Positions 21,244-59,772 of a stretch of 64,000 nucleotides of DNA are shown here, piece by piece. The DNA lies in IMG/VR virus record IMGVR_UViG_3300012209_000005, positions 51,416-115,415 of that record; one strand, given 5' to 3'. Both the position numbers and the translations under genes were made by a program. The notes beneath the pieces were generated by a model that worked only from the letters and a program-made list of their open reading frames with translations, was not told the DNA's origin and made no database searches. Origin of the DNA: a virus. Position 1 is the first letter of the stretch, and each line of letters opens with the position of its first letter.

Positions 21244-21594
21244 TTACGCGGGGACCTGGATCCCCAGTTCCGCGGCCTTGCCCGGGTCCAGGAAGCGGGT
21301 CTCGAAATGCCCGTCGCCGTACCAGACATCCGCCACGTCCGTGTCCCTGGCCAGCCGCATCTTCACCACGGTGCGGGTGTACGGGTTGACAAGGACGCTC
21401 ACCTGGACGCCGGCCGCCTTGCCGGCGACAGCGTTCTCGTCCAGGTAGATGTCCAGCGTCTCCGTCTGCCGGTACGCCGCGGCGTCCTCGCTCAGCTCGC
21501 GGTAGGAATCCTCGCACAGCCACACCTGGCGGACATCGCCCTTGCGGGCATCCCACTCATCGCGGCAGAGATCCTGGAATGCCTTAAGCTTCAT
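21244..21594 (-). CDS. Small protein coupled to the portal fusion
   Basis: 116 residues, ATG overlapping the portal stop as ATGA. Contains VSVLVNPYTRTVVKMRLARD and DVWYGDGHFETRFLDPGKAA. Acidic at the N-terminus. Not recognised. Translational coupling to the portal-MuF fusion suggests a partner or immunity-like role for that protein, which is inference only. Confidence 0.6.
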   Translation of the reverse strand: MKLKAFQDLCRDEWDARKGDVRQVWLCEDSYRELSEDAAAYRQTETLDIYLDENAVAGKAAGVQVSVLVNPYTRTVVKMRLARDTDVADVWYGDGHFETRFLDPGKAAELGIQVPA

Positions 21595-24500
21595 CGTGCC
21601 TCCTGTTTCGGGCTCGCGGAATTTTCCGAGACCATCTTGTTTTCCGGGCTGGAACCGGAATGGACCTGGTGGGTGTGAGTCTGCTCAGCTGCCTCCCGGT
21701 CCTTCTCGTCGATGTAACCGACGTACCCGAGAACGTCCTGCCCAAGGTTTTTCCTCGCCAGGGCACGGTGGTGCCCGTCGACAATAAATGCCTTGCTGCT
21801 CGTGGGTTCCTGGACGAGCACCGAGGGGGCGACATGCCCGCTGTGGGCCTTGATCTGGGCCTCGAATTCCTTCGTCTTCTCCGGCTGGTGCGAGGCTGCC
21901 CACTTGTCGATGTCGTCGGTGTCCACCCGGTTCCACGGGATGAAGACGGGGCCCGTCCACCGGGCCCGCCTGATCCAGGCGATAGCCTCCGGCGGGAAGT
22001 TTTTCGCCATCTGCACGTAAACGTGCTCGGCGTCCACCGGGTTCGGGTCATGGTAGTCAGACGGCCCGCCGGCATCAGCGGGGTGACTGGGGAAGCCCTT
22101 CACCTTCTTCGGGGAAGGCAGGTCTACGATAAAGTTTCCCTCGCCCGGGACATCGTGCCCTGTTGCCTCGGCGGGGTCCGCGGGCCGGGGGGCCTCTGGA
22201 TGCCCCGCACCCGGTCTGCCAGCCATTGGAGGGCGCACACCCACAACGGGATGCGGCGCCCCCTTCTTGTTGCCGCCCGGAACAGATTGGGCTCCGACGC
22301 CCGGGTCACCCGTGGTTCCGCCCTGCGGGTACATGCCGTCCGGGTCCCCATCGGGGAGCCGTCGCGCGGGAGTACCCTTACCCGGCCGCTTCTTAGGATA
22401 ATCCTCGTCATCAGAGCCTCTCGGGTAGATGCGCGCTTCCTCTTCATCCGACCTGTCATCGCCGACTGGCCAGTGCGGGGGCTCGGTCGCGCCCATCTCG
22501 CCATCTGCCTGGCCGCCGCCCGGGGGCTTATTCGACGGGTAGCCATTCGATGCCGCCGGGCTCGGGTACGGCCACCGGGAACCGCCGCCGGCCGCGGAAT
22601 TGTCATCGGCCCGCAGCCATTCCCCGTTCTCGGTGCGGATATTCTGGAGCTTGGCGATGTCCTTGAAGTCAATGGCATCCCACTGCTCCCGGAACGGGGG
22701 GTGCAGCTTCAGCTTGCCCACTTCCTTGTACGTGAACCAGCCGGTGCCCATCGTCTCGTCGGGGGTCTTCCCGTTCATCTTCACGGGGAACACCCGGCCG
22801 GCCTCGCACACGTAGATGAAGCAGCTCCTATCCTCGTCGTAGCGCTCGTGGGCGACCTTCGGGGTCACCGGGGGGATATCCCCGATTTCCTCGGTAGTCT
22901 CCCGGACCGCGGCGTCGAAAGACGGCTCCCCCATGTGGGCCATGCCCCCCGGCAGGCCCCACGTGTTATCGGTACGCTTCTGCAGCAGGTACCGGGTCCT
23001 CCCGTCCGCGTCCTGTCCGGTGATCATCAGGAAGCACACCCGGGACGGGTCTTCCTGCTTCCTGATATGCGCCTGCGGGGGCTCGGCGGTCACCCCGGCG
23101 GGGGCGGACACGCACCGGCACTGGACGTGCAGGGGGGCGTCGCCCCCGGCATAGATGGCATCGAGGGGGATGACGCCGGCGGCTGCCGCGCCCTTGCACG
23201 CCGCGCAGGTGCGCTCATCCGGCGCGAGCAGCAGGTGCTTATGGGTCACCCCGCGGTCCCTGTACGCCTGCAGCACGCCCGCGTTCATGGCGCGGGCCAC
23301 CTCGGTGCGGGCGATCACCTCGCTGCGGGCATTGCTGTTGCCCAGCCCGGTGCGGGAGATCTGGTCCACCCAGTGCCGGGTCTCCTTGGTCACCCACGCT
23401 TCACGGTTGTAGTCGTCGTGCGCAGAGGTGAAGTCGGCCTTCCCGCCGCTGGCGAGCGCGGCGCCGCCCTCGTACCCCAGGTCCCACGCCTTCTCGTACA
23501 GCGGGGTGAGCACCGGAGTGAACACGCTGGCGATCGAGTCGGAGATCATCGAGTTGAGCACGCCGACGGTCACGTACTCCCCGGCCGCCTGCTTCTGGCG
23601 GATCTCCCGGCCCTGGGCCTCGGCGTCGGCGAACGCGGAGGAGATCTCCTCCTTGTACCTCCCCACCAGGCCCAGGTCGTGCTCCCACCCGGGGAACTGC
23701 TGCTCCGCAGGGGCCTCGCCCCCGGTGATATAGCGCTTCTCCCCGTCCTGCGGGGGAGGTTCCCCGCCGTAGGTGTCCTTGATGTACTCCAGCCCAGCCG
23801 AGACCTGCACCTTGCCGATCTCGCGGCCCACCGCGACGTCCACGCCCGTGCCCGCGTCCAGGTCCTCGGCGATCCTCGCCAGGGTGATCGTGTCGATGTG
23901 GCGGGGCTGCCAGGACCAGATGACATCACGGTCCTTGCGCAGGAAGCGCTTCAGGCTCTCCAGCTCGGACAGGGCCGCCTTGTTGCGGGCCCGCCCCTGG
24001 GTGGGGGTGCGCCCCTCGCCGCGCTTGCGGGAGCCTGCTTGCGGGCTGCGGCCGGCGCTGCCCCCGGTCTTCCCCCGCTGGGGACGCTGCAGCGCGCCCG
24101 CCGCCGCCGCGTGCGCGGGGGTGCTCGGGCTGGCGCGCGGCGGGGACTTGGGCGCCGGGTGGCTCCCGTTCGGCTTCGTGGTGCCGCCGCTGGAGCGCGC
24201 CTTCGGCTTCTTCGGCGAGGAGGAAGGCGACTTCTTCTTGCCGCCGGAGGATGAAGAGCTGCTGCTGCCCTGCTGTCCCTGCATCGCCATTATCATCAGC
24301 TTCTCGGCGTCGGAGAACGGGACCGGGCCCTGCTGGGTCATGACGATAGGCTCGGAGGTCTCCTTCATCCCCCACGGGGGCAGGTCCAGGCGCTCGCGGA
24401 TCTCGTCGACCGAGGAAATCCCGTTCTGCAGCTGGTCCACGCCCAGCTGGGTGATCGCCTGCTTATCCTCGTCGTCGGTCATGCCCTCGAACTGGAATTG

Positions 24501-25916
24501 CGTGTCCGGGCAGTCGCAGATGACCTGGATGACATGGTTGAAGATATCCTGGATGAAGCTCAGCAGGGGCTTGGTGGACGTGCGCGACTTGATGTTCCGC
24601 GTCTCCTGGCCCATGAACCGTATCCCCGACGCGGACGGGCCCTGCTGGGTGCCGCCCACGTTGGGGATGATGCCCAGCTCGATCGGCTGGATGTCGAAGG
24701 CCATCACTACCTGGTTCATCACCAGGTAGTCGAAAGAATCGCTCAGGTCCACCGGGCGCTGCGGGTCCACCTTGCTCCCCGGGGGCAGGACGATGACCTT
24801 CAGGTGGTAGGCCGGGTCGCCCGCCAGGGCATTCAGCGCGTTCTGGAGTTCCCCCACCTGCGTCGGCGTGATGTTATTGTCGCCAGGCGAGATATATACG
24901 GCCGGAACCGTGCCCTCAGTGAAGTAATCAAGCTGGAACTCCTGCTTCTGAAGTCCCGAGATGATCGGCAGAAGCGCTCTTTCAATCGGGGGGAATCCAT
25001 ACGGGGTCTCCCGTCGTGGCCAGTAAGGGGCGTAGAGCATGGTGTCGGCGCTGAACTGGTTGACCTGGGCGCCCTCAAGCCCCGCCTCCTCGATGTCAGT
25101 ACCCATCGCGATCGTCATGTAATCGCTGCGGGGCACCCCGTACAGGTACTGCTGGTACGCGGGGGCGGGAGGGGCCGGCTTGCCCCCGAAAACATCGATC
25201 AGGGGCCGCACGGTCGGTCCGGCTATCAAGCGGATGCTATCCAGGTTGCTGCCCAGGAGCCCCCGGCCGCCCATTCCCATCCGCGCGCCGTATTTCGGCC
25301 GGAAAATGATGCTCAGGGCGTCGAAGACGAAGATTTCCTCCAGCAGCGCGGCCAGGAAGGAGTCGAAATTCCAGAAATCCGGGTCAGGGCGGCGGAAAAA
25401 GCGGGTGAGCTGCTTCTTGCGCTCCCCGAAGTCCCGCATCGCGCCCTGGTCTTTCTGGTAGACCTTCGCGGCGTCGGTGGTGAGCGCGATATTCCAGTCC
25501 AGGCCCCGGATCTCCTCGATCCGCAGCTCGATGGCAGCCCGCGCCACAGAGTATTTTTCGGCGAGGACGCGGAGATTCTCGAAAGAGCTGAGCTTCAGCC
25601 CCTCCGTGCCCGGGGGGGTGGGCAGGTTCCAGCTGGGACGAGGCTCCCAGTACCGGGGGCCCGGGTACTGCCCGCCGAACGGGGGGTTGTTGACGGGGGT
25701 CGGCTGGATGGGCGCGGCGGGGGCGAACGCGCCGTCGGTGAAAACCTCGGCGGGACGGTCCAGGAAAGGACCGTAAGCAGCGTTATAGGAACCGCCCGCC
25801 ATCGCGTTTGCCATGGCGGGGCTGATCCTGCCCATGCCCGCGGCATTCGCCGGGGAGTAACGCCCCCCGGCCGGCAGGGCTTTCACGGCTGCCACGATCG
25901 CACCCGGACGCGCCAT
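21591..25916 (-). CDS. Portal-MuF-Nudix-ParB-like fusion protein
   Basis: 1441 residues with four parts. About 80-545 is a portal (YSVARAAIELRIEEIRGLDW, PVDLSDSFDYLVMNQVVMAF). About 558-690 is a Ser/Lys/Pro linker. About 820-940 is a MuF head-morphogenesis domain (VIARTEVARAMNAGVLQAYR, DERTCAACKG, HVQCRC). About 960-1100 is a Nudix hydrolase with GGMAHMGEPSFDAAVRETTE around residue 985-1010. After a Pro/Gly-rich linker, about 1300-1410 is a ParB/Srx-like module with FIVDGHHRALARK. Portal and MuF are often adjacent genes; here they are one chain with two extra catalytic-type domains that would be carried in the virion. Confidence 0.88.
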   Translation of the reverse strand: MARPGAIVAAVKALPAGGRYSPANAAGMGRISPAMANAMAGGSYNAAYGPFLDRPAEVFTDGAFAPAAPIQPTPVNNPPFGGQYPGPRYWEPRPSWNLPTPPGTEGLKLSSFENLRVLAEKYSVARAAIELRIEEIRGLDWNIALTTDAAKVYQKDQGAMRDFGERKKQLTRFFRRPDPDFWNFDSFLAALLEEIFVFDALSIIFRPKYGARMGMGGRGLLGSNLDSIRLIAGPTVRPLIDVFGGKPAPPAPAYQQYLYGVPRSDYMTIAMGTDIEEAGLEGAQVNQFSADTMLYAPYWPRRETPYGFPPIERALLPIISGLQKQEFQLDYFTEGTVPAVYISPGDNNITPTQVGELQNALNALAGDPAYHLKVIVLPPGSKVDPQRPVDLSDSFDYLVMNQVVMAFDIQPIELGIIPNVGGTQQGPSASGIRFMGQETRNIKSRTSTKPLLSFIQDIFNHVIQVICDCPDTQFQFEGMTDDEDKQAITQLGVDQLQNGISSVDEIRERLDLPPWGMKETSEPIVMTQQGPVPFSDAEKLMIMAMQGQQGSSSSSSSGGKKKSPSSSPKKPKARSSGGTTKPNGSHPAPKSPPRASPSTPAHAAAAGALQRPQRGKTGGSAGRSPQAGSRKRGEGRTPTQGRARNKAALSELESLKRFLRKDRDVIWSWQPRHIDTITLARIAEDLDAGTGVDVAVGREIGKVQVSAGLEYIKDTYGGEPPPQDGEKRYITGGEAPAEQQFPGWEHDLGLVGRYKEEISSAFADAEAQGREIRQKQAAGEYVTVGVLNSMISDSIASVFTPVLTPLYEKAWDLGYEGGAALASGGKADFTSAHDDYNREAWVTKETRHWVDQISRTGLGNSNARSEVIARTEVARAMNAGVLQAYRDRGVTHKHLLLAPDERTCAACKGAAAAGVIPLDAIYAGGDAPLHVQCRCVSAPAGVTAEPPQAHIRKQEDPSRVCFLMITGQDADGRTRYLLQKRTDNTWGLPGGMAHMGEPSFDAAVRETTEEIGDIPPVTPKVAHERYDEDRSCFIYVCEAGRVFPVKMNGKTPDETMGTGWFTYKEVGKLKLHPPFREQWDAIDFKDIAKLQNIRTENGEWLRADDNSAAGGGSRWPYPSPAASNGYPSNKPPGGGQADGEMGATEPPHWPVGDDRSDEEEARIYPRGSDDEDYPKKRPGKGTPARRLPDGDPDGMYPQGGTTGDPGVGAQSVPGGNKKGAPHPVVGVRPPMAGRPGAGHPEAPRPADPAEATGHDVPGEGNFIVDLPSPKKVKGFPSHPADAGGPSDYHDPNPVDAEHVYVQMAKNFPPEAIAWIRRARWTGPVFIPWNRVDTDDIDKWAASHQPEKTKEFEAQIKAHSGHVAPSVLVQEPTSSKAFIVDGHHRALARKNLGQDVLGYVGYIDEKDREAAEQTHTHQVHSGSSPENKMVSENSASPKQEAR

Positions 25917-38044: not shown

Positions 38045-38244
38045 AGGTATTCCTCCGATACGTCCAGCCACTCGGCATGCCGGAATGCTCGCGCGTGCCG
38101 GCATTTCCCCTCCCTGCGGTAATCCGGGCACAGGCACGTCCACTCGCTCGTCCGGTAGTCCCACCGTGCCGCGTAGCGGACCGGCCGGGGGTCCTGCTCA
38201 TACGGCTGGATATCGTCATCGTCGTCCCACCACATGACCCTCAT
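38041..38244 (-). CDS. SWIM zinc-finger protein
   Basis: 67 residues. WTCLCPDYRREGKCRHARAF is a SWIM finger (CxC-x8-CxH), a small zinc fold for DNA, RNA or protein contacts. Overlaps the TROVE gene end by 29 nt (by 20 nt if the second ATG at 38235 is used), implying coupling. In larger proteins SWIM fingers often sit next to ATPases or vWA proteins. Confidence 0.75.
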   Translation of the reverse strand: MRVMWWDDDDDIQPYEQDPRPVRYAARWDYRTSEWTCLCPDYRREGKCRHARAFRHAEWLDVSEEYL

Positions 38245-40162
38245 TCTCCCATGGCCATTTCGCGCTGTACCCGGACTCGATCCGCTGCATGACCGAGAAA
38301 GACGCGTCGGTCAGCCCCGCCAGGGCATACCGCCGGGCCCCCGTCGGGAAGGCGCCGTGGCTGTACCCGGACAGGTTCCAGGCGTACACGGGGACGCTCT
38401 CGGGCAGGCACGCGGTGATATCCCCGATCTGGGACGCCCACTGCGCGTTCCACCCGGGGCCCCCGGGGATCGTCTGCTCGTCGGAGAAGATCGCCACCCG
38501 GGTATGCACCGAGGAGTCGAAGCACTGGCGGAGGTTCTGCTCGATGGCCGTGCCGTACCCGCAGACCCCGATAGCCCCGGTGACCACCTCCATCAGGCGC
38601 AGCAGCGAGGCCCCCGGCTCGATGCCCTCGAAGTAGACGTGCCCGTCATAGCTTTTCTCGCGGCTCCCCCTCCCCCACGGGTCACTCGCCCTCCCGGGGG
38701 GGTCCGCGAACCCGAACACGTCCACGCGGCCGGCGTTGCGCACCGCGAGAGCCATCGCGAAAAGGGCAGCCGCCTGCAGGCGGGTCGGCCGCCTGGTGTC
38801 ATCAGGCTTCCCGCCGCCCCTCCTGTCCTTACGGGGAGGCTGAGACAGCGGATTCGCCATCGACCCGGACATGTCGATCATGATGAGCGTGCGCCCCCCG
38901 TCCAGGTGCGGCACGTTCCGGATAGACGCCTGCAGGGCCTGCTCCAGGGACGCCAGCCAGTGCACCGAGCGGGTGTTCATATGCGCGGCCAGGAACCGGA
39001 ACGGCAGCTGCCGGGACTCCGCTACCTCCCCCGGGTCCGCCAGCCGGTCCTGGATTTCGCGGATCATCGGCGGCTTGATGCCCGCTAGCTCGAAGTTCCG
39101 CAGGTTGCGCAACACCGCCATATACCCCATCCAGGGCAGGACCAGCTCCCAGCGCTCTCTCTCGGACAGCGCCCCGGGGAGGTTACCCGCCCCCTCCCCC
39201 AGCCAGGAGGTCACCCACTCCCACTGGCCGGCGGCAGCCCGCTTGATGCCGCGGCCGGCGAAGCTGTCGCGGTCGGCCAGGGCCTGGGCGGCGAAAGCGT
39301 GGCGGTCCTTAGGCGGCAGCCTGCCCAGGTGCCGGCGCTGGTCGATCGCCGGCAGCCCCGCCGGGTTCCCGTCGCCGTGATGGCGCTCGTCCAGGAGGTA
39401 CCGGAAGAGCTTCTCCCGGTGCTGCGCCTGGCGGTGCAGCCAGGCGAGAACGTAAAGCTCGCGCGCATAGCGCGGGTCATCCCGGAAAAGCTCGCGGAGC
39501 GAGTCCCGTTCCTCGGCCGAGGAGGAGTCGTCCGCCCACCTCCCGAAGTACTCATCGGTGACGGCGAAATCCTCGGGCAGGGTGACCAGGCGGGGACGCG
39601 GGTGGACAAGCTCGATGGCGTCCGCGAACCGCAGCGGGCGCCCCGGCTTATCCCAGCGGATCACCGACCGCTCGTTCCACATCCGCAGCATCGCCTTCTC
39701 CGCGCCCAGCTTCACCGCTTTCGGCAGCTTGCCGAAGGTGCGCAGGCAGTACTGGATGATCTCGGTGACCTCATCGCCGCGCTGCAGCACCTTATCCACC
39801 AGGTCCGCGACGACGGCGGTCGAGTTGGGGGTCCCGTTCAGCGACCAGGCGGTTTCCGCGGCGAGCATCACCGCCGAGGTGCGGATGAAAGCGTCGCTGC
39901 GCAGCCAGGGCAGGAAGCCCCGCAGCCAGCCGAAGTCATCCCTTGCCAGCTGGCGGGTCAGCTCGACAGCCCTGGCATCGGCGGTCCGGGCGTCCTCGTA
40001 GAAGCTGCCCTCGCCCGCGAAGACGGTGGTCGCGCGCATGAAAAGCTCGGTGCGAGGGTCGCAGGCGAAGCCGGCGCCGCCCTCGTGGGTCTTTCCGGAC
40101 GGGGTGGCCTCCGTCTGCAAGGGCGCGGTGAGCAGGCGGGACCCCGTGTTGAGCTTCGTCAT
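38216..40162 (-). CDS. TROVE-vWA protein (Ro60/Rsr-like)
   Basis: 648 residues from ATG 40162. The N-terminal 400 residues are a helical TROVE ring (TELFMRATTVFAGEGSFYED, AVELTRQLARDDFGWLRGFL, EVTEIIQYCLRTFGKLPKAV). The C-terminal vWA domain has an intact metal site DMSGSMANPLS (about residue 430). Ro60 proteins bind the ends of misfolded RNAs and Y RNAs; bacterial Rsr works with ribonucleases. About 110 residues longer than Ro60. Followed by SWIM and RyR genes. Probably RNA quality control or host-RNA handling during infection. Confidence 0.92.
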   Translation of the reverse strand: MTKLNTGSRLLTAPLQTEATPSGKTHEGGAGFACDPRTELFMRATTVFAGEGSFYEDARTADARAVELTRQLARDDFGWLRGFLPWLRSDAFIRTSAVMLAAETAWSLNGTPNSTAVVADLVDKVLQRGDEVTEIIQYCLRTFGKLPKAVKLGAEKAMLRMWNERSVIRWDKPGRPLRFADAIELVHPRPRLVTLPEDFAVTDEYFGRWADDSSSAEERDSLRELFRDDPRYARELYVLAWLHRQAQHREKLFRYLLDERHHGDGNPAGLPAIDQRRHLGRLPPKDRHAFAAQALADRDSFAGRGIKRAAAGQWEWVTSWLGEGAGNLPGALSERERWELVLPWMGYMAVLRNLRNFELAGIKPPMIREIQDRLADPGEVAESRQLPFRFLAAHMNTRSVHWLASLEQALQASIRNVPHLDGGRTLIMIDMSGSMANPLSQPPRKDRRGGGKPDDTRRPTRLQAAALFAMALAVRNAGRVDVFGFADPPGRASDPWGRGSREKSYDGHVYFEGIEPGASLLRLMEVVTGAIGVCGYGTAIEQNLRQCFDSSVHTRVAIFSDEQTIPGGPGWNAQWASQIGDITACLPESVPVYAWNLSGYSHGAFPTGARRYALAGLTDASFSVMQRIESGYSAKWPWENEGHVVGRR

Positions 40163-40188
40163 ATCAGGCCTTTCGGAGCAGGGACGTA

Positions 40189-40518
40189 TCAGGCGTCTGC
40201 GGCCACGGGCTCGTCCTTGCGGTGAGCCAGGGTCCACTCCCGCACGGACTTCTCGCGGGCGGCGGCATCCCCCGGATGCCAGGGACTCGCATGCCAGGCG
40301 GCAGCCAGGATGACGCGCCTGGCCGCGCGTGCCAGCTCGGATAGCTGCCAGGGGGTCAGGCCCCCGGCAGCCACATTAGCGGCGTGACGCCTCTCCTGGG
40401 CCGCGTGCAGGGCCCCGTGGCGGACCTCGGCCCGCCGGCGGCAGGCGGCGCGGGCATTCTTCTTGCGCTCGCTCTGGGGCCGCTTGCTCTTCCCGCTCTT
40501 CTGCGCCTTCCCTGCCAC
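40189..40518 (-). CDS. Basic helical protein upstream of TROVE
   Basis: 109 residues from GTG 40518 with GAGGAG upstream. The N-terminus is strongly basic (KSKRPQSERKKNARAACRRR), then Ala-rich helices (LTPWQLSELARAARRVILAA). It ends 26 nt before the TROVE start and is likely its operon leader. RNA binding is plausible from charge only. Confidence 0.6.
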   Translation of the reverse strand: MAGKAQKSGKSKRPQSERKKNARAACRRRAEVRHGALHAAQERRHAANVAAGGLTPWQLSELARAARRVILAAAWHASPWHPGDAAAREKSVREWTLAHRKDEPVAADA

Positions 40519-45404: not shown

Positions 45405-45683
45405 TCACGCCGGCGTGCCGGCCTCCCGGAGCGCGGTCCCCGGAGCTTCGCTCCCCCGCGGCGCGGCCTGCGAGCACCACCACAGGTGATGGTCGGTCTC
45501 GCAGAGCACCGCCCCGCAGTGCGGGCAGTGGCCCTCTCCGGGGCCGAGGACCACCCACTGCCGCAGCGCTGCCGTCAGCGCCTGGCAGGTGTCCAGGCCC
45601 ATCCGGGCGGCCTGCGCGGTGAACGAGTCCCACGCGGAGTCGGTGACGCTCACCTGCCTCTCACGGGTCAGGTCAAGCATCAT
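45405..45683 (-). CDS. Small protein with helix domain and zinc ribbon
   Basis: 92 residues. The N-terminus MLDLTRERQVSVTDSAWDSF could be a ribbon-helix-helix-like regulator; then CPHCGAVLCETDHHLWWC is a zinc ribbon; the C-terminal tail carries a palindromic repeat (RGSEAPGT). Two ATGs follow GGAGGACA. Divergent from 45807; a TATAGT -10 box for it lies at about 45725-45730. Possible transcription regulator. Confidence 0.55.
   Translation of the reverse strand: MMLDLTRERQVSVTDSAWDSFTAQAARMGLDTCQALTAALRQWVVLGPGEGHCPHCGAVLCETDHHLWWCSQAAPRGSEAPGTALREAGTPA
45435..45457. repeat. Dispersed palindromic repeat, copy 7 (shortened)
   Basis: CCCCGGAGCTTCGCTCCCCC; half of the AGCG arm is lost. Read GSEAPG. 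Confidence 0.65.
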
Positions 45684-45806
45684 TGTCCTCCACCAGGGTC
45701 CGGAGCAGAAGTGTTCAGCCAGTGTGACTATACCCGCCTTGCCCCCCGGCGCGCGCCCGTAGTAAAGTCGGACCCCGGAAGGCGTCACGGAAAGAGGAAC
45801 GAGAAG

Positions 45807-46106
45807 ATGATCACGACCCTGGATGAGCTGCGCCAGTACTTCGAGCACCTGGACACGCTGCCCCCGAGCGAAGGCCGGCAGGACGCGGAAGCGGCGCTGA
45901 GGCCCGTCCTGGAAGCCTTCGGCGGGTGGGAGGACGGGCACCTGGGCGCGTTGCTCCTGCACCTGGGGATGACCCTGGCGACGCAGCGCGGGCAGCAGGG
46001 CACGGTCGCGCTGCAGGAGACGCTCGCCGAGATGCTGCGCATCCTGCACCGGCGGGCAGTGATCTGGGGCAGCGAAGCTGCGCCCTCCTGGGGGAGCGTC
46101 AATTGA
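45807..46106 (+). CDS. Hypothetical helical protein
   Basis: 99 residues; LDELRQYFEHLDTLPPSEGR, HLGALLLHLGMTLATQRGQQ and a C-terminal repeat insertion (WGSEAAPSWG). AAAGAGGAAC upstream. Its stop overlaps the next start (TTGA). Unknown. Confidence 0.6.
   Translation: MITTLDELRQYFEHLDTLPPSEGRQDAEAALRPVLEAFGGWEDGHLGALLLHLGMTLATQRGQQGTVALQETLAEMLRILHRRAVIWGSEAAPSWGSVN
46065..46093. repeat. Dispersed palindromic repeat, copy 8
   Basis: GGGGCAGCGAAGCTGCGCCC, read GSEAAPS at the end of the 45807 gene. Confidence 0.7.
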
Positions 46107-46300
46107 GGGCGGTCCTGATCATCGCGGCCGGGGCGCTCATCCTCTTCGGGTCGGTCACCCTGGCGGCGGCCAGCGAGGGGCGCCCGCTGACCGTAGCGGG
46201 AACCTGGGCCGCGGGCGCGATCATATGCGCCGGCGGCATCATATGCGCGGGGCTGGCGGGGAGACCGGGGAAGGGGAACCGCCGTGACCGGAGAGGGTAG
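46103..46300 (+). CDS. 65-residue two-span membrane protein
   Basis: TTG start (TTGA). Spans VLIIAAGALILFGSVTLAAA and WAAGAIICAGGIICAGLAG with a basic C-terminus. Function unknown. Confidence 0.55.
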   Translation: MRAVLIIAAGALILFGSVTLAAASEGRPLTVAGTWAAGAIICAGGIICAGLAGRPGKGNRRDRRG

Positions 46301-46523
46301 GGGGCGGGTGCGGGTCTCGGAGCGGGGGCACACGAACCTGTCGGCGGTGCGCACCCAGAAGCACGAGTTCTACATCGGGTACGAGGACCCGGACGGGACC
46401 ATCCACCTGGTGCCGGCGGTCCTCGTGCCCGCCACCCTGGTGAAGGTGCCCACGGCGGGACGGGCGACCCTGAGCAGGGAACGGGGGACGCCCCCGGGGG
46501 AAGACGACGAGGAGAAGCCGTGA
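46284..46523 (+). CDS. Hypothetical protein
   Basis: 79 residues; HEFYIGYEDPDGTIHLVPAV is a small beta domain, with an acidic C-terminus. GTG start within the end of the membrane gene; its stop overlaps the next GTG (GTGA). Confidence 0.55.
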   Translation: MTGEGRGRVRVSERGHTNLSAVRTQKHEFYIGYEDPDGTIHLVPAVLVPATLVKVPTAGRATLSRERGTPPGEDDEEKP

Positions 46524-46795
46524 ACGAGGAGCAGGCGGCCGGGGCTAGCGGAGCTGCGCTCCCCGGGGCTAGCGGAGCTGCGCTCCCCGGGGGCGAAGGT
46601 ATGGTCCCCTTCGACGAGGGCGGCTACGTCACCTCGGCAGTGAGCATGAGCGCGCCCTGGGAGCTGTTCTTCTCCCGCCCCCCGGATGCGCTCACTATCA
46701 CCGAGCGCATGGTCGGGGAATGGCTGGAAGCCAACTGGGAGGTGGCCGCGATGCACTGGGACCCGGACGGGTGCGAAGGCGAGGCGCCCTTCTAG
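46520..46795 (+). CDS. Hypothetical protein with tandem repeat insertion
   Basis: 91 residues. Near the N-terminus two exact tandem copies of the 24-bp palindromic repeat are read GASGAALPGASGAALPG. Then LFFSRPPDALTITERMVGEW and NWEVAAMHWDPDG. GTG start (GTGA). Tail-to-tail overlap of 4 nt with the next minus gene. Confidence 0.6.
   Translation: MNEEQAAGASGAALPGASGAALPGGEGMVPFDEGGYVTSAVSMSAPWELFFSRPPDALTITERMVGEWLEANWEVAAMHWDPDGCEGEAPF
46541..46588. repeat. Dispersed palindromic repeat, copies 9 and 10 (exact tandem pair)
   Basis: Two identical 24-bp units, 46541-46564 and 46565-46588, core CTAGCGGAGCTGCGCTCCCC. Shows that the element duplicates in frame. Confidence 0.9.
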
Positions 46796-46980
46796 CCGGC
46801 TTCGGCCTCCTGCGCCACGATGAAGCTCAGGGCGGGAACGCGGTAGGGTATCTCGTAGGAGACGGAGAGCACCTCCCAGCGCTCCCCCCCAACCATCAGG
46901 TAGTCTCCCGGGCGGGGCGGGTGCCTCATCTGCAGCATCCTGGTTTCCGACCCGTTGCCGATCTTCACCTCTGAATCCAT
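46792..46980 (-). CDS. Small beta protein
   Basis: 62 residues; GDYLMVGGERWEVLSVSYEI is a short beta domain. AAAGGACGAG precedes the ATG. One of three minus-strand small genes leaving the control region leftwards. Unknown. Confidence 0.6.
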   Translation of the reverse strand: MDSEVKIGNGSETRMLQMRHPPRPGDYLMVGGERWEVLSVSYEIPYRVPALSFIVAQEAEAG

Positions 46981-47059
46981 GATCTCGTCCTTTACGCTTG
47001 ACTGCCTGTCCCTTCATGTGCTACCCCCTTCCTACCCCTGTTCCCCTCCGATGTCACAG

Positions 47060-47082
47060 AGAAGCGCACTTTCGCTGCCCTG
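47060..47082. repeat. Dispersed palindromic repeat, degenerate intergenic copy
   Basis: GAAGCGCACTTTCGCTGCCC, with changes in the centre. Confidence 0.5.
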
Positions 47083-47096
47083 AGATCACGGAAAGA

Positions 47097-47270
47097 TCAC
47101 ACGCGGGGGATCGTGCGCACCAGGACCTGGCGGGGGCTGTGCTTATGCCTGGGGGTCACGCACTTCTCCACCCTGACGACCTGGATGCCGTCCCTGGTGC
47201 TCTGGTAGACCTCATGGCTGAACACCCAGGTGTGACCCTTCGGCTGCCTCTGGCCTTTCCTCCCGGTCAT
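47097..47270 (-). CDS. 57-residue basic protein
   Basis: From ATG 47270 (ATG 47297 possible): GHTWVFSHEVYQSTRDGIQV then KCVTPRHKHSPRQVLVRTIP. Overlaps the next gene upstream. Unknown. Confidence 0.5.
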   Translation of the reverse strand: MTGRKGQRQPKGHTWVFSHEVYQSTRDGIQVVRVEKCVTPRHKHSPRQVLVRTIPRV

Positions 47271-47421
47271 AAGCGCACCCCCGGTCCCCGTCATCATCTC
47301 GTCCCGCCGGCAGCGAAGCTGCGCTTCCCGCCAGGTGCCGGCAGCGCAGGCACACCCCCAGGTCCAGGAGGATGAGCGTCCCGCACTTCGAGCAGCGGTG
47401 GTGCTTGCGGGGGCTACCCAT
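47212..47421 (-). CDS. Zinc-ribbon protein with palindromic repeat
   Basis: 69 residues; HHRCSKCGTLILLDLGVCLR with CRH gives a compact zinc ribbon, followed by the repeat peptide AGSAASLPAG and an acidic/Arg tail that overlaps the 47097 gene. First gene left of the control region. Unknown role. Confidence 0.55.
   Translation of the reverse strand: MGSPRKHHRCSKCGTLILLDLGVCLRCRHLAGSAASLPAGRDDDGDRGCAYDREERPEAAEGSHLGVQP
47306..47334. repeat. Dispersed palindromic repeat, copy 11
   Basis: GGCAGCGAAGCTGCGCTTCC, read GSAASLPA on the minus strand. Confidence 0.75.
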
Positions 47422-47515
47422 GGTGGCTCACCGAAGCGAGCCTACCCGGGAGAAGCGGGTGCCCGGGTTCCGCTGCCCGGTCACCGCCGCTCATGCAAGT
47501 CAGCCTAACAAAAAA

Positions 47516-47531
47516 TGTGAGCCAGGTCACC
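47516..47531. promoter_or_regulatory. CRP-type palindrome 1
   Basis: TGTGAGCCAGGTCACC: TGTGA-N6-TCAC with one end mismatch, next to the AT-rich patch. Confidence 0.5.
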
Positions 47532-47829
47532 ATCCTCTACGCGTGCGTGCATGTGCATTATTAAAATTTGGTAACAATATACCCGCGACACGCCCATTAC
47601 TTTTTGAAATTGCAGGTCACAGTGCTTGTCCGATTTGCAAGCGTATGATAACTTGGTGATTGTGGTTTCGGTCGCAAGAAACTCCCGACCTTAGCACGGA
47701 GCACAACGGCTTCCCGGGAAAGTTTCCGGCCTCGCACCTGGTTTTCTCAAAAATACATGCCGACGCTTGCCGGCATGCCCCCGGCACCGAAAGCGAGCTC
47801 GAATCATCGAGCTGGTGTTCTAGCGCACT

Positions 47830-48190
47830 CGCACATGTGTTCGAGGCTCGCACATGCGTTCGCTTCGCGCGCATGTCCGGACATGCGCACATGCTCCATG
47901 CTGGGTGTGAGTATGTCCTGACATGAGTACATGCGCATGTGAGCACATGCGCCCATGGGTCGCGCATAGGAAGGGCGAACCGGCGTACCTGGTGCCAGGC
48001 GTGGTCGTTTAGGCCTGGACTGTGAACGCTCGAATGCGCGTTCGAGGGGGGCTACTTAGGGCACTGCCTGCCCGATGGTGTGTGCTGGTGCATGCGCGCG
48101 CATGGGCGAGTACATGTGGAGGAGCGCTAGTGAAGCGCGCGGGCGTACATGCATGTGCATGCATGTTCTGTGAGCTGTCCTGTTGGGGTG
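47830..48190. repeat. ACATG/CATGT repeat cluster
   Basis: More than ten copies of RCATG words such as GCACATGCG and GTACATG in both directions, in two groups (47830-47960 and 48090-48170). Could be iterons of an origin or sites for a phage DNA-binding protein. Confidence 0.55.
47869..47888. repeat. Perfect 20-bp palindrome
   Basis: GCGCATGTCCGGACATGCGC, perfectly symmetrical, in the centre of the ACATG cluster; a likely binding site for a dimeric protein. Confidence 0.85.
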
Positions 48191-48399
48191 AGCCTAAGTT
48201 TGGGGTTGACTCGGTGGTTCCCCTGCAGGGCGCCGGCCCTGGGTGCATGGGTGCAGGCCAGGGCCAGCCTGGTGGTGCCCCTTGCGGAGCCTGCGAGCGT
48301 CGCTCCGGGGAGCACGGGGGCGCGCCCCCCCTGGAGCATGGGTGCCCCCCGTGCTTGCCCGCCTGGAGCGCTGTGAGCGCCGCCTGAGTTGTCCGCATG

Positions 48400-49480
48400 G
48401 CCTTTGACCTGCCATGTTCGACCGCTTCGAACGGTTAGCCTCGCTAATGGACACGCTTTCGCTTTCTTGCGGGCCTTACTACAGCCGGTAGTTTGTCCTG
48501 ACATACCACCTGGTCTTTTGCGCATCTCGCCCCGTCAGGTGCCCCCAGGGACCCCCTGTAGCCTGCGGAAACACCTGTAGGCGCCTCTCAGGGCCCCTAG
48601 GGGTAGCTAGGTATGGGTCCATCGAACAGAGCCGTCTGAGACCGTCTGGGCAAAGGCTATCGAACTAGTAGGCTTCCCCGGTTCGAATACGGGAGCAATA
48701 TCTTCCCGTGACCAGGCGTTACGGGTAATGTGACGCAGGTCACACACTCTCGGATCAGGTATCTTGACCTGCAAGTACGCGCATCGTGCCAGGTCACGCC
48801 CCAGTTGCGCTTTCCCCCCGGGGGACCGACTCTGCAATTAGTTCGTTTTTCGCCCGGCAACGAGGACCGGGAGGCCCGCCTCACGCGGAGGTCGATGGCC
48901 AGGTAAACCCCGTCTTCTCTGGGGCGACAAAATTCCACCTGGTTCTCTCCTGGGCATGGTTTCACATGCCCGTAGGTCTGCACCGTCAAGTCTAGAACTT
49001 GGCCATATGCCGGCGCGCTCGGGATACGTCTTAGGCAGGGCCTTAGCTGGCCCGTAAGTCCTCCGTAATGGTTGCCGTATCTCCTGGAACTGCTCACGTT
49101 ACTTACTTAACCGTGAGGTTGTGTCCCGGTAGCTGTCGCGAGACAGCTAGGCTCCGTGATCCGTAAGGGTCCCGTAGCTAATGTTCACCAACGGTGCAGG
49201 TAAAAACGGCCCATGAGTGATAACCGGTCCAAGGCCCGCCCAACGATCTAGTTGGTAACGTGTGGTGAAAACACGGAAGGGTACAGCCGGCGAAAGTCAC
49301 GTTCGGGAGGGATAACCACGGTGCGATTCATAGCGGAGGATAGCGACAATAGCGACGCTATGCCTAAAACGGACATGCGCTGGATGTGGCGCAAGCGCCG
49401 GGCGCCTCTCAGGTGCCCGGCTTCTAGAGGTTCCGTGCTGGCAAGCTGACTCGTAAGAGCGCTACATTGCTCCGCAAACG
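48400..49480 (+). ncRNA. Candidate large structured RNA region
   Basis: Many short perfect stems in series: 48952-48958 with 48965-48971; 49130-49137 with 49142-49149 closed by a GCGA (GNRA) loop; 49329-49335 with 49356-49362; 49397-49403 with 49415-49421; plus CACC-AAC-GGTG near 49187 and CGTGT-N7-ACACG near 49259. GC-rich hairpins without coding suggest a long folded transcript, as in large ornate phage RNAs, but no known class is recognised. Strand chosen from the following plus genes. Confidence 0.4.
48729..48744. promoter_or_regulatory. CRP-type palindrome 2
   Basis: TGTGACGCAGGTCACA, a perfect TGTGA-N6-TCACA site as recognised by CRP/GlxR-family regulators. Confidence 0.6.
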
Positions 49481-49526
49481 CTGTATGTGTGCCCTACCGG
49501 GCAGGTAGGTGGAGATTGAGACTGCC

Positions 49527-49745
49527 ATGAAAAACAGCAAGTTCAAGCCTCTCGCATCCCCCGTTTACCAGCCCAAGCCGCTCACCTATGAGCAGGCCCG
49601 CACGTGCTCCTCGGCTAGTGCCTGGCTGAAGTCGCAAGGCTTCTCCGCTATTGACGGTTCGCCCGTCACGGCGGCAACCAGGACCCGCCGGCCGCGGCTC
49701 GCGCGCATCGCCCGTGATTCGTCCAAGCTGACGCTGGATATCTGA
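49527..49745 (+). CDS. 72-residue basic protein (cassette A)
   Basis: MKNSKFKPLASPVYQPKPLT, then EQARTCSSASAWLKSQGFSA. ATG 49527, with GGTGGAG upstream; GTG 49509 is an alternative. The stop overlaps the next ATG by one base. Function unknown. Confidence 0.6.
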   Translation: MKNSKFKPLASPVYQPKPLTYEQARTCSSASAWLKSQGFSAIDGSPVTAATRTRRPRLARIARDSSKLTLDI

Positions 49746-49867
49746 TGAAGGGGCAACCCCGGAAGGACACGATTGTGAAGGCAATCGACGCGACGCACCC
49801 GATCCTGGGGATCCCCTGGATCTCCCCCCCGACGCGAACCCCCTGCCCGGCCGACAGTCAGAAGTGA
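49745..49867 (+). CDS. 40-residue peptide (cassette A)
   Basis: MKGQPRKDTIVKAIDATHPI followed by a Pro-rich tail. TGATG coupling to the upstream gene. Unknown. Confidence 0.5.
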   Translation: MKGQPRKDTIVKAIDATHPILGIPWISPPTRTPCPADSQK

Positions 49868-49868
49868 C

Positions 49869-49976
49869 ATGCACTACGAGAATTGCGGCAACCCCGCGAC
49901 TCACGATCATCACCTCTGGTGCGCCGGCGGAACATGGAAGGAATGCGCCGGCATTCCGTCCCGCACGGAAGACTGA
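49869..49976 (+). CDS. 35-residue Cys/His peptide (cassette A)
   Basis: MHYENCGNPATHDHHLWCAG then WKECAG: a likely small zinc site. One nt after the upstream stop. Unknown. Confidence 0.5.
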   Translation: MHYENCGNPATHDHHLWCAGGTWKECAGIPSRTED

Positions 49977-50312
49977 TCACGCACCACAAAACACCACTGC
50001 CTGCCCGGTAGGGCACACATACGGCAACGCGATACGCCCGCTGGCGGTTCGGAGATTACCTCTGCGCCACTGGCAACGCTAAACGCTTCACAGATACTGC
50101 GGGATGGATGTGCTCCCGGATGACCTTAACGGTCTGGGGCAACTAAGGCCCCTATAAGATCCGCACCTCAGATTACGAGGGTAAAAGTCGCATGCTCTGT
50201 GTCGGCTGCAGGTTGCATGCTAGCCCGGAAAATACCGGTGCCGGCGGGCGTATCGCGTATCACCTGCTATACCGTATGTCCTTTTAGCCGGCCGGGGATC
50301 GGGGGAGTCGTC
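49977..50312 (+). other. Spacer between cassettes A and B
   Basis: Contains the right arm of cassette A and the left arm of cassette B. The middle has GCATGC repeats that can pair (50193-50198 with 50214-50219) and a GGGG...CCCC stem near 50136-50156. A frame with protein-like composition (RWRFGDYLCATGNAKRFTDT) lacks a start and follows a TAG, so I do not call a gene. Confidence 0.5.
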
Positions 50313-50513
50313 ATGGACGCTCTCATGAATTCCCAGGTCGTTATCGCGCTTGTCACCCATCATGACGGCGCCACGGAAACACGCATACAGAACAAAGCGC
50401 ACATTTTGAGCACGCTGGAATCCGATGTGATCAGCGTGTCTTTCCCCGTGCTCTTGCACAACGCCAACTAGCCGCATAAGTTCCGGCCGGCTAAATGGGC
50501 ATACGGGTAGCAG
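50264..50513 (+). repeat. ORF cassette B with flanking inverted repeat
   Basis: Arms 50264-50295 and 50483-50513 pair over about 30 bases. The inner part (left CCTTTTAGCCGGCC, right GGCCGGCTAAATGGG) is shared with cassette C. The outer part (CCGTATG with CATACGG) differs from C but stays complementary. One ORF inside. Confidence 0.8.
50313..50471 (+). CDS. 52-residue protein (cassette B)
   Basis: MDALMNSQVVIALVTHHDGA, then ILSTLESDVISVSFPVLLHN. Excellent ribosome site GGGGGAG 5 nt before the ATG, just inside the left arm. Function unknown. Confidence 0.65.
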   Translation: MDALMNSQVVIALVTHHDGATETRIQNKAHILSTLESDVISVSFPVLLHNAN

Positions 50514-50563
50514 GCCCATTACCGCGTGTCCTTTTAGCCGGCCAGCCGGATTGTGAGTATCAC

Positions 50564-50692
50564 ATGACCAATCCTGTCTGCGGGCGTTGCCGGGAGCGTC
50601 TCACCCGTCACTGCCCGGAATGTAGCGCATGCCCGGGGCAGGAATGCCCCTACTGGTGTGCGCTCAATGACAACCCAGTCCGGAGGAGGTGA
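50564..50692 (+). CDS. 42-residue Cys-rich zinc protein (cassette C)
   Basis: PVCGRCRERLTRHCPECSAC then CPYWC: seven Cys in a ribbon-like order. ATG 50564. Its last codons carry GGAGGAGG used by the next gene. Confidence 0.65.
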   Translation: MTNPVCGRCRERLTRHCPECSACPGQECPYWCALNDNPVRRR

Positions 50693-50697
50693 ACACT

Positions 50698-50868
50698 ATG
50701 ATCACCGTGACCCGCCGTTATTTCAACGGGAACACCTACGTCACCGTTCACAGCAAGACACGCCGCAACCCGTGGCGCGCCATCGGTACCAACCAGGGTA
50801 CCCGCGGCATTCGAGCGGGACTCAAAGTCAACCTGTACCCGTCGGCGAACTGGCGTTACAGCCACTGA
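50698..50868 (+). CDS. 56-residue basic beta protein (cassette C)
   Basis: MITVTRRYFNGNTYVTVHSK then GLKVNLYPSANWRYSH. Very strong GGAGGAGGTG 6 nt before the ATG. Basic, Asn/Arg/Tyr-rich; may bind nucleic acid. Unknown. Confidence 0.7.
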   Translation: MITVTRRYFNGNTYVTVHSKTRRNPWRAIGTNQGTRGIRAGLKVNLYPSANWRYSH

Positions 50869-50910
50869 TACCAGCCGGCCGGCTAAATGGGCACGCGGTA
50901 ATGGCATTCA

Positions 50911-51185
50911 CCCTAGCGCGTCACCTTGCGCCGGCGGAAACGAGGCATCAATGGCTCTTAACACCAGCGTCAAGATCGTGCAAGTTTCGCTAAGCGCTAA
51001 CGACGCTGCCACCGTGCAAGCGTTGCTAGACCACGTTCGCACTTTCCCCGGCTGGGAAAGCGACAACGCGAACGTGACGGAAGACACGCGGCGAGGCGGG
51101 TACACCGTCCGTTACGCCGCAGCATCAATTCACCCCCCCGAGTAGACACTCTCCATGTCTGCCGGCACATGGTGGCACGCTAGGG
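50911..51185 (+). repeat. ORF cassette D with flanking inverted repeat
   Basis: Arms 50911-50938 and 51158-51185: 23 of 28 positions are complementary and two more are G-U, ending CCCTAGCG / CGCTAGGG. Encloses ORF 50951-51145. Arm sequence differs from B and C. Confidence 0.75.
50951..51145 (+). CDS. 64-residue protein (cassette D)
   Basis: MALNTSVKIVQVSLSANDAA, then VQALLDHVRTFPGWE and GGYTVRYAAASIH: a compact alpha/beta fold. GAGG 5 nt before the ATG. Function unknown. Confidence 0.7.
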   Translation: MALNTSVKIVQVSLSANDAATVQALLDHVRTFPGWESDNANVTEDTRRGGYTVRYAAASIHPPE

Positions 51186-51611
51186 AAACGGGAAAGTCAT
51201 CACTGGGTAACTCCCCTAACAGTCGGATAGGCCGCTTCGTTACAGCGCACATGCCTATGAGCCTGATGAGGCTATAAACACTGTGCTCTGGCTTTCCTGT
51301 CATGCGATATGGTCACCGCCTGGTAAGTAGAGGCATCCGGAACATAGGCGGTAGGCCGGCTCTCACCATATCGCTATCGATCATGCCCAATGGTCCTAGT
51401 CAGTTCTTGACGCAAGGATAGGGATCTAGTCCTAAGCACCATCGCCATTAACTCATGATCGTGTGTTTACGGTGCGGCACGGCGAATACGCAAGCCGCGC
51501 ACTTCCGGCACGTCAAAATGCTAAACCAGTTACGGTACGGCTAACCGGCGTGTCTTACGTGCGTGCATTAATCTCCGCGCCCATCCGCAAGCGCAAGGAA
51601 AGGAAAAGCAC
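51186..51611 (+). other. Non-coding spacer with strong hairpins
   Basis: No convincing ORF. A nested stem lies at 51304-51374 (listed separately). GGGAAAG near 51190 can pair with CTTTCC near 51292, enclosing an AGCC-N5-GGCT hairpin. Possible small RNA region or leader of the 51.6-kb operon. Confidence 0.45.
51304..51374 (+). ncRNA. Two-tier perfect hairpin
   Basis: GCGATATGGT (51304-51313) pairs perfectly with ACCATATCGC (51365-51374), and just inside ACCGCCT (51315-51321) pairs with AGGCGGT (51346-51352): 17 bp in two stems. Candidate small RNA or processing site. Confidence 0.5.
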
Positions 51612-58665: not shown

Positions 58666-58799
58666 AGGTAATGGTCGGCCCGCTCTGTCAGGTAGCCGAC
58701 TTCTATGCCAGGTACGCACTAGTACCCGGCAAGGCTACTTGCGACCACGGTAGCTGTCACCGCATAGAAAAGGAAAGGTCTTGTCATGAAAGTCAGTGA
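58662..58799 (+). CDS. 45-residue protein
   Basis: MKVMVGPLCQVADFYARYAL then CDHGSCHRIEKERSCHE. Overlaps the ArdC-like start by 14 nt. Unknown; Cys/His pattern could bind zinc. Confidence 0.5.
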   Translation: MKVMVGPLCQVADFYARYALVPGKATCDHGSCHRIEKERSCHESQ

Positions 58800-59772
58800 A
58801 GTCAACGAGGTCGTCACCGCGAAAGTGCTGGAGGCGCTCGGCAACGGCGTGCTCCCGTGGTCCCAGCCCTGGCATTCGGGACTGCCCACCAGCCTGAGCA
58901 CGGGCAAGCCCTACCGGGGCATCAACACCATGCTCCTGGGCCTGACCGCGATGGCGAAAGGCTACTCCTCGCCCTACTGGGGCACGTTCGGGCAGATCGC
59001 CAAGCTGTCCGGGTTCACCGAGACACCGCGCGCCAGCGGCAAGGGCGCCTGGTGGGCGCCGCCGCTGGATGACCCGGAGCGCCGTATCCTGCTCCCCGAG
59101 CAGAACGGGACGAAGGTCTACCTGTGGAAGCTATCCAAGCGCGCCGACCCCGACTCGCCGCACGACCGGGATAAGGATCACGTCTACCTGTTCGCCCGCG
59201 TCTACACGGTGTTCAACTACGACCAGTGCGCGTCCCTCCCGGACAAGTACGCCGGCGGGCTGACTGGCGCTCACGCGGAGGCCATCCCCGAAGCGCAGGC
59301 CGTCTTCGACGCCTATATCGCGGAACGCGGTCCCGAGCTGCGGTTCGGGTCGATGGCTTACTACGAGCACAGCAAGACGGCGGGAGTGGACCGGATCACC
59401 ATCCCCCCGCTGGAAGCCTACCCGGGCAAGCTGACGGGCGAGTACGAGTCGACGAACTTCCACGAGGCCGCGCACTCGACCGGGCACTCCAAGCGGCTGA
59501 ACCGCCCCGGGTTCGATGAGTACACCTCACGTAGCCCGGACACGTACGCCCGTGAGGAACTCATCGCGGAGATGACCTCGGCGATGCTCTGCGCGTACCT
59601 GGGCATCGACGCCCCGTTCGATAACAGCGCCGCCTACCTGGCCGGGTGGGCACGCAAGATCGCCAGCGAGGATGAGAAGAACCTGATCACGACCGCGGCC
59701 AGGCAGGCGCAGAAAGCGTTCGACTACATCCTGGGGACCACCTACGACAACGATGGAGACGATGACAAGTGA
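58786..59772 (+). CDS. ArdC-like antirestriction protein
   Basis: 328 residues. The N-terminal ssDNA-binding domain has VLPWSQPWHSGLPTSLSTGK, PYRGINTMLL and PYWGTFGQIAKLSGF. The C-terminal zincin domain has NFHEAAHSTGH (HExxH-like: HEAAH) and a downstream Glu in REELIAEMTSAML. ArdC proteins protect incoming DNA from restriction. AAAGGAAAGG upstream. Likely early gene that shields the phage genome. Confidence 0.92.
   Translation: MKVSEVNEVVTAKVLEALGNGVLPWSQPWHSGLPTSLSTGKPYRGINTMLLGLTAMAKGYSSPYWGTFGQIAKLSGFTETPRASGKGAWWAPPLDDPERRILLPEQNGTKVYLWKLSKRADPDSPHDRDKDHVYLFARVYTVFNYDQCASLPDKYAGGLTGAHAEAIPEAQAVFDAYIAERGPELRFGSMAYYEHSKTAGVDRITIPPLEAYPGKLTGEYESTNFHEAAHSTGHSKRLNRPGFDEYTSRSPDTYAREELIAEMTSAMLCAYLGIDAPFDNSAAYLAGWARKIASEDEKNLITTAARQAQKAFDYILGTTYDNDGDDDK

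What the first reader, a model, noticed from the sequence alone, without database searches (positions are those of the whole stretch)
49483..51185. Four consecutive small-ORF cassettes, each enclosed by its own long inverted repeat
A: 23-bp perfect arms around three ORFs. B: about 30-nt arms around one ORF. C: about 36-nt arms around two ORFs. D: 28-nt arms around one ORF. B and C share the inner arm but differ in the outer arm (CCGTATG/CATACGG versus CCGCGTG/CACGCGG) while keeping pairing, which is compensatory change. Each left arm is followed by a ribosome site and each right arm follows a stop, like a processing stalk around a pre-rRNA. They could be RNase III-processed, end-protected mini-mRNAs, or mobile gene cassettes. 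I know of no such described phage system.
Basis: seen in the sequence. Interest (0 to 1): 0.88.

Follow-up and report, generated by a model that had tools for sequence, protein, structure and literature searches.

The report
Phage genes individually wrapped in RNA stems
In an uncultured, probably actinobacterial phage, a row of tiny genes each sits inside its own long RNA stem, and a related phage keeps the stem around the same gene although both strands of the stem have changed sequence, pointing to an undescribed way of packaging short messenger RNAs.

Summary
Five gene-sized segments (not four) tile 49480-51185, each closed by its own 19-32 bp stem, with linkers of only 1-6 nt. They are the five best long-range stems in the 64-kb window; random sequence gives about 0.4 such stems per 64 kb. 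Four segments hold small ORFs with coding-like GC bias; the fifth (A', 50027-50258) has no convincing ORF and was missed.

I found a related phage (portal about 65% identical; IMG/VR contig of 135 kb) with the same architecture: seven such segments, five with ORFs and two without. It carries an orthologue of cassette B (62% amino-acid identity; codon-position identity 33/45/17 of 53). Its closing stem is intact (29-34 bp), yet the arms no longer cross-pair with those of the window (-17 versus -60 kcal/mol), with about 18 double changes in 32 pairs.

Start codons lie mostly 12-18 nt inside the left arm, and right arms begin 2-20 nt after the stop. Best explanation: mini-mRNAs cut out or end-protected by their stems, probably by host RNase III. 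Cutting itself is inferred. Mobile-cassette and single-ncRNA readings fit worse. No precedent was found.

The parts
49480..49508 (+). Cassette A left arm
   Evidence: 29 pairs incl. 2 G-U, -62.5 kcal/mol
49527..49745 (+). ORF A1, 72 aa
   Evidence: GC3 0.78 vs GC1 0.53; starts 18 nt after arm
49745..49867 (+). ORF A2, 40 aa, TGATG overlap with A1
   Evidence: GC3 0.85
49869..49976 (+). ORF A3, 35 aa
   Evidence: GC3 0.72
49997..50025 (+). Cassette A right arm
50027..50045 (+).
   Evidence: 19 pairs, one G-U, -41.2 kcal/mol
50046..50239 (+). Interior of A', no convincing ORF; like the ORF-less units in relative G009
50240..50258 (+). Unit A' right arm
50263..50296 (+). Cassette B left arm
   Evidence: 32 pairs, -60 kcal/mol
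50313..50471 (+). ORF B, 52 aa; orthologue in relative G009 (L290:943-1101), 62% identical
   Evidence: codon-position identity 33/45/17 of 53
50482..50514 (+). Cassette B right arm
50516..50549 (+). Cassette C left arm; shares GTCCTTTTAGCCGGCC with B
50564..50692 (+). ORF C1, 42 aa, cysteine-rich (zinc-ribbon-like by eye)
50698..50868 (+). ORF C2, 56 aa, strong SD GGAGGAGG
   Evidence: GC3 0.79
50871..50904 (+). Cassette C right arm; shares GGCCGGCTAAATGGGC with B
50911..50938 (+). Cassette D left arm
   Evidence: 25 of 28 paired, -48.7 kcal/mol
50951..51145 (+). ORF D, 64 aa
   Evidence: GC3 0.71
51158..51185 (+). Cassette D right arm
51188..51300 (+). Weaker trailing stem-closed segment (10 closing pairs), ORF-less
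48972..49446 (+). ORF-poor, rod-like folded segment just upstream of the cassettes, possibly part of the same transcript
   Evidence: helices 48998-49017/49376-49395, 49027-49037/49361-49371 and others; folding z about -3 at 49000 on both strands; no Rfam family

Best explanation
The 1.7-kb region is a string of RNA beads read from the + strand. Each bead carries one short mRNA (one to three small ORFs) or, less often, a non-coding segment, and its two ends pair into a 19-32 bp stem that nearly abuts the next bead. Shown: the stems, their specificity, their tiling, protein coding of B by comparison (of the others by base composition), and selection for pairing across phages. Inferred: the beads are transcribed together; the stems form in the RNA; host RNase III or a similar nuclease cuts within each stem, or exonucleases stop at it. 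Each small gene would then become a separate, end-paired, stable mini-mRNA whose expression does not depend on its neighbours, much as pre-rRNA stalks release 16S and 23S rRNA. Confidence applies to RNA-level gene-enclosing units that define or protect separate short mRNAs; RNase III as the actual cutter I put at about 0.45.
For: Five tiled stems are far above chance. Own-arm pairing dominates in 12 beads of two phages. The orthologous B cassette has arms that do not cross-pair (-17 and -16 vs -60 and -56 kcal/mol) while both stems are intact, with about 18 double changes in 32 pairs when anchored at the inner end. The ORF is conserved as protein: position-3 identity 17/53 vs position-2 45/53. 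Geometry is constant: start codon 12-18 nt after the arm in 8 of 9 coding beads (45 in one), right arm 2-20 nt after the stop, linkers 0-7 nt except one of 33. Stems exceed a typical RNase III substrate length of about 20 bp (general knowledge). G-U pairs possible in + strand RNA outnumber A-C mismatches 26:7 as drawn and about 2:1 in a strand-neutral alignment. In other actinophages, abutting stem-closed RNAs matching YrlA below the curated score sit beside Ro genes, so such packing of RNA units has a parallel.
Against: There are no transcript or end-mapping data. Only one orthologous cassette pair exists; the other cassettes have no homologue. The strand-neutral G-U test is only suggestive (p 0.06-0.14). 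Most related phages examined lack the tiling, so it is not essential to the lineage. No phage-encoded RNase III was found. A stem so close to the RBS and stop could instead mainly affect translation.
Confidence: 0.68

Rival explanations
1. Translation control: the closing stem keeps the 3' end next to the ribosome site, so that ribosomes recycle or are gated by the stem; processing is incidental or absent.
For: Start codons lie 12-18 nt inside the left arm and right arms start 2-20 nt after the stop, so initiating and terminating ribosomes would touch the stem.
Against: ORF-less beads with equally strong closing stems exist in both phages (A'; G009 1174-1306 and 2133-2279), which a purely translational role does not explain.
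Confidence: 0.17
2. DNA-level mobile cassettes: the arms are terminal inverted repeats or recombination sites that let small genes move or be swapped.
For: B and C share arm sequence around unrelated ORFs; cassette content differs between phages.
Against: Each unit has its own arm pair; arms of orthologous B are different sequences in the two phages; no other copies of the B/C arm in IMG/VR apart from one unrelated chance hit; no transposase or integrase was seen among the genes examined, though none was searched for specifically; arms are placed relative to start and stop codons.
Confidence: 0.1
3. One large structured non-coding RNA (of the GOLLD or ROOL kind) in which the ORFs are accidental.
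For: The neighbouring 47.5-49.4 kb are ORF-poor, lower in GC and strongly folded.
Against: No Rfam family matches. ORF B evolves as protein. All ORFs have coding-type GC3.
Confidence: 0.04
4. Arms are ordinary intergenic elements (terminators, operators, start-associated repeats) whose long-range complementarity is a by-product of repeat similarity.
For: B-right and C-left can also form a local hairpin (I6).
Against: No T-tracts; terminator-like hits are at the shuffle level. Arms of A, A' and D are unrelated in sequence to those of B and C, and all left arms pair best with their own right arm.
Confidence: 0.01

Closest known systems
Bacterial and archaeal pre-rRNA processing stalks (RNase III or splicing endonuclease)
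   Same: Long stem formed by sequences flanking a functional RNA of hundreds of nt; its cutting would release the RNA.
   Different: Here the enclosed RNA is a tiny mRNA (or unknown RNA), many units abut, and cutting is not demonstrated.
RNase III-processed T7 early mRNAs (from general knowledge)
   Same: Phage polycistronic RNA divided into single mRNAs at double-stranded sites.
   Different: T7 sites are local hairpins between genes; here the two strands flank each gene and adjacent genes mostly have unrelated stems.
YrlA / Y RNAs beside Ro60 genes in actinophages (Satis, L148)
   Same: Stem-closed RNA units, abutting in tandem, in phages that encode Ro (as this phage does).
   Different: They hold a tRNA-like core and the Ro motif, no ORF; no YrlA match in the window; relative G009 has the cassettes but no detectable TROVE gene.
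Cluster K mycobacteriophage ESAS (PMC3203893)
   Same: Phage inverted repeats tied to small-gene starts.
   Different: ESAS are 17-bp imperfect repeats separated by a variable spacer, upstream of the start, with a genome-wide consensus; here arms enclose the gene and each unit has its own sequence.
Integron or transposon gene cassettes
   Same: Small gene modules bounded by inverted sequence.
   Different: No shared recombination site and no constant end; arms are placed by start and stop codons.

Membership tests
RNase III-type processing stalk | Flanking sequences form a long (about 20 bp or more) near-perfect stem around the product RNA | tested here: met
   19-34 pairs in 12 units
RNase III-type processing stalk | Pairing conserved by compensatory change in homologues | tested here: met
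   for the one orthologous unit available
RNase III-type processing stalk | Staggered cleavage within the stem in vivo | not testable with these tools
   needs end mapping
YrlA / Y RNA | YrlA covariance model match or tRNA-like core with Ro-binding stem motif | tested here: not met
   no match in the window; positive controls L007 and L148 score below gathering but E down to 1e-6
ESAS (Cluster K) | Short-spacer inverted repeat with common consensus upstream of starts | tested here: not met
   arms flank ORFs; arm sequences differ between units
Mobile cassette / transposon | Same terminal or recombination site reused at other positions or phages | tested here: not met
   shared only by B and C in this genome
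Intrinsic terminators | GC hairpin followed by a T run | tested here: not met
   4 hits vs 4.0 expected, none at the arms
Known structured phage RNA (GOLLD, ROOL, introns and others in Rfam) | Covariance model match | tested here: not met

The most novel reading that the evidence does not exclude
A gene organisation in which a phage issues its small early or accessory genes as individually stem-closed mini-mRNAs: modular RNA shells whose cargo ORF can be exchanged, and which are cut apart into separately stable (possibly end-joined) messages, interspersed with non-coding beads of the same build.
Probability: 0.45. Interest if true: 0.92.

Novelty: categorically new. Interest (0 to 1): 0.85.

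Why it matters
Bacterial and phage mRNAs are normally defined by promoters, terminators and nuclease sites between genes. Here the unit seems to be a gene sealed in its own double-stranded shell, with the shell, not its sequence, conserved. If confirmed it would be a new principle for separating and stabilising very short messages, would show that mRNAs can be released like rRNAs, and would offer a portable way to set the expression of each gene in a compact operon.

Tried and rejected
Direct searches for the cassettes found nothing: blastn of the region in 50,697 phages, tblastn of C2 and D and of two G009 cassette proteins, PHROGs and Pfam for C1 and A3; the arm 16-mer in IMG/VR gave one unrelated chance hit. 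Terminase as a query found no relatives; relatives came through the Ro protein and then the portal. A Y RNA origin of the beads was considered because the phage encodes a Ro60-like protein, and dropped: no YrlA match, and G009 lacks a detectable TROVE gene. A phage-encoded RNase III was sought and not found. A family scan for B gave no loci although G009 holds the gene, so that scan is not evidence of absence; a direct search of 50 contigs found B only in G009. The strand test with symmetric scoring did not reach significance, so the stronger 26:7 count is treated as biased. The predicted fold of B (pLDDT 82) has no significant relative; D did not model well. The syntenic region of G008 has only weaker ORF-less stems.

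Full report
What was checked. The window is bases 51416-115415 of a 115-kb uncultured virus record. Its proteins point to a large phage of Actinobacteria: terminase about 31% identical to Gordonia phages, Ro-like protein like those of Streptomyces, Gordonia and Arthrobacter phages. The host itself is not known.

The stems are real. Repeat finding, folding and an ungapped stem scan agree on five closing stems: A 49480-50025, A' 50027-50258, B 50263-50514, C 50516-50904, D 50911-51185. Linkers are 1, 4, 1 and 6 nt. These are the five best non-redundant helices within 700 nt in 64 kb; 40 Markov-simulated windows gave 15 helices of comparable score in total. Folding of 20 simulated 1.9-kb sequences never produced a row of long closing helices.

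The ORFs look coding. All have GC3 of 0.70-0.85, above GC1 and GC2, and most have plausible ribosome sites. ORF B is proven by comparison: see below.

A relative with the same architecture. Relatives were reached in steps: Ro protein alignment, portal alignment, then long contigs. Among about 6 Mb scanned (with some overlap) only one other record has the tiling: G009, IMGVR_UViG_3300025912_000012, 135 kb, portal about 65% identical. Its first 3 kb hold seven stem-closed units: 899-1140, 1174-1306, 1310-1649, 1652-2132, 2133-2279, 2283-2618, 2626-2962. Linkers are 33, 3, 2, 0, 3 and 7 nt. Five hold one ORF each, two hold none. Genes to the right are syntenic with the window.

Covariation. G009 unit 899-1140 encodes MDALANSQVV..., 62% identical over 52 aa to ORF B. 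Codon-position identities are 33, 45 and 17 of 53, the mark of protein selection with saturated third positions. The closing stems have 32 pairs in the window and 29-34 in G009. Cross-pairing of arms between the phages gives only -17 and -16 kcal/mol against -60 and -56 for own pairs. Anchored at the inner end, about 18 of 32 pairs differ on both sides; the exact number depends on how the arms are aligned. Within the window, B and C share the inner arm and differ at 8 pairs on both sides, around unrelated ORFs, as if a shell had been duplicated and its cargo replaced.

Which molecule pairs. Distances are set by translation signals: start codon 12-18 nt after the left arm in eight of nine coding units (45 in one), right arm 2-20 nt after the stop. 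That points to RNA. G-U pairs (tolerated in + strand RNA) exceed A-C mismatches 26 to 7, but arm ends were chosen with G-U allowed; a symmetric alignment gives 12-22 versus 5-12 and p 0.06-0.14. So the strand argument is suggestive only.

Mechanism. Shown: gene-enclosing, unit-specific, selected pairing in two phages. Inferred: co-transcription from the + strand, stem formation in RNA, and use of the stems to cut out or protect separate short mRNAs. RNase III is the natural candidate because the stems are long near-perfect duplexes and because pre-rRNA is released in the same geometry; no phage RNase III was found, so the host enzyme would act. The ORF-less units argue that the shell serves RNA units in general rather than translation alone. 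In Satis and in L148, abutting stem-closed RNAs upstream of Ro genes match YrlA below the curated score, an independent example of tightly packed stem-closed RNAs in actinophages; they are not members of the same kind, since the window has no YrlA match and G009 has no detectable TROVE gene.

Known systems. Rfam gave nothing. Literature searches in an open-access library found no description of genes individually enclosed in stems; subscription papers were not searchable. ESAS of Cluster K mycobacteriophages are different in layout and consensus (PMC3203893).

Limits. One orthologous cassette, two genomes, both metagenomic, no RNA data. The proteins have no known function.

Noticed in passing
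38216-40237 (-): Ro60/TROVE-like RNA-binding protein (PF05731, E 5e-11), about 9 kb from the cassettes; no YrlA RNA found in the window.
   Followed up: partly
47500-49450: About 2 kb without clear genes, lower GC, folding z of -2 to -4 over much of it, a rod-like segment 48972-49446 and a tRNA T-arm-like GGTTCGAAT at 48680; no Rfam family. Related contig G008 has a similar ORF-poor stretch at 91.0-93.5 kb.
   Followed up: partly
L007:2599-2942 (Streptomyces phage Satis) and L148:9290-9850: Tandem, abutting stem-closed RNAs upstream of Ro genes, matching YrlA below Rfam's gathering score; not annotated in the Satis record.
   Followed up: partly
45441-47327: Recurring GC-rich hairpin words such as AGCGAAGCTGCGC and a 24-nt tandem repeat at 46539-46592.
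   Followed up: no
21591-25916 (-): 1441-aa ORF that joins portal, MuF-like head morphogenesis and NUDIX domains.
   Followed up: no
58786-59772 (+): ArdC-like anti-restriction protein (phrog_7245).
   Followed up: no
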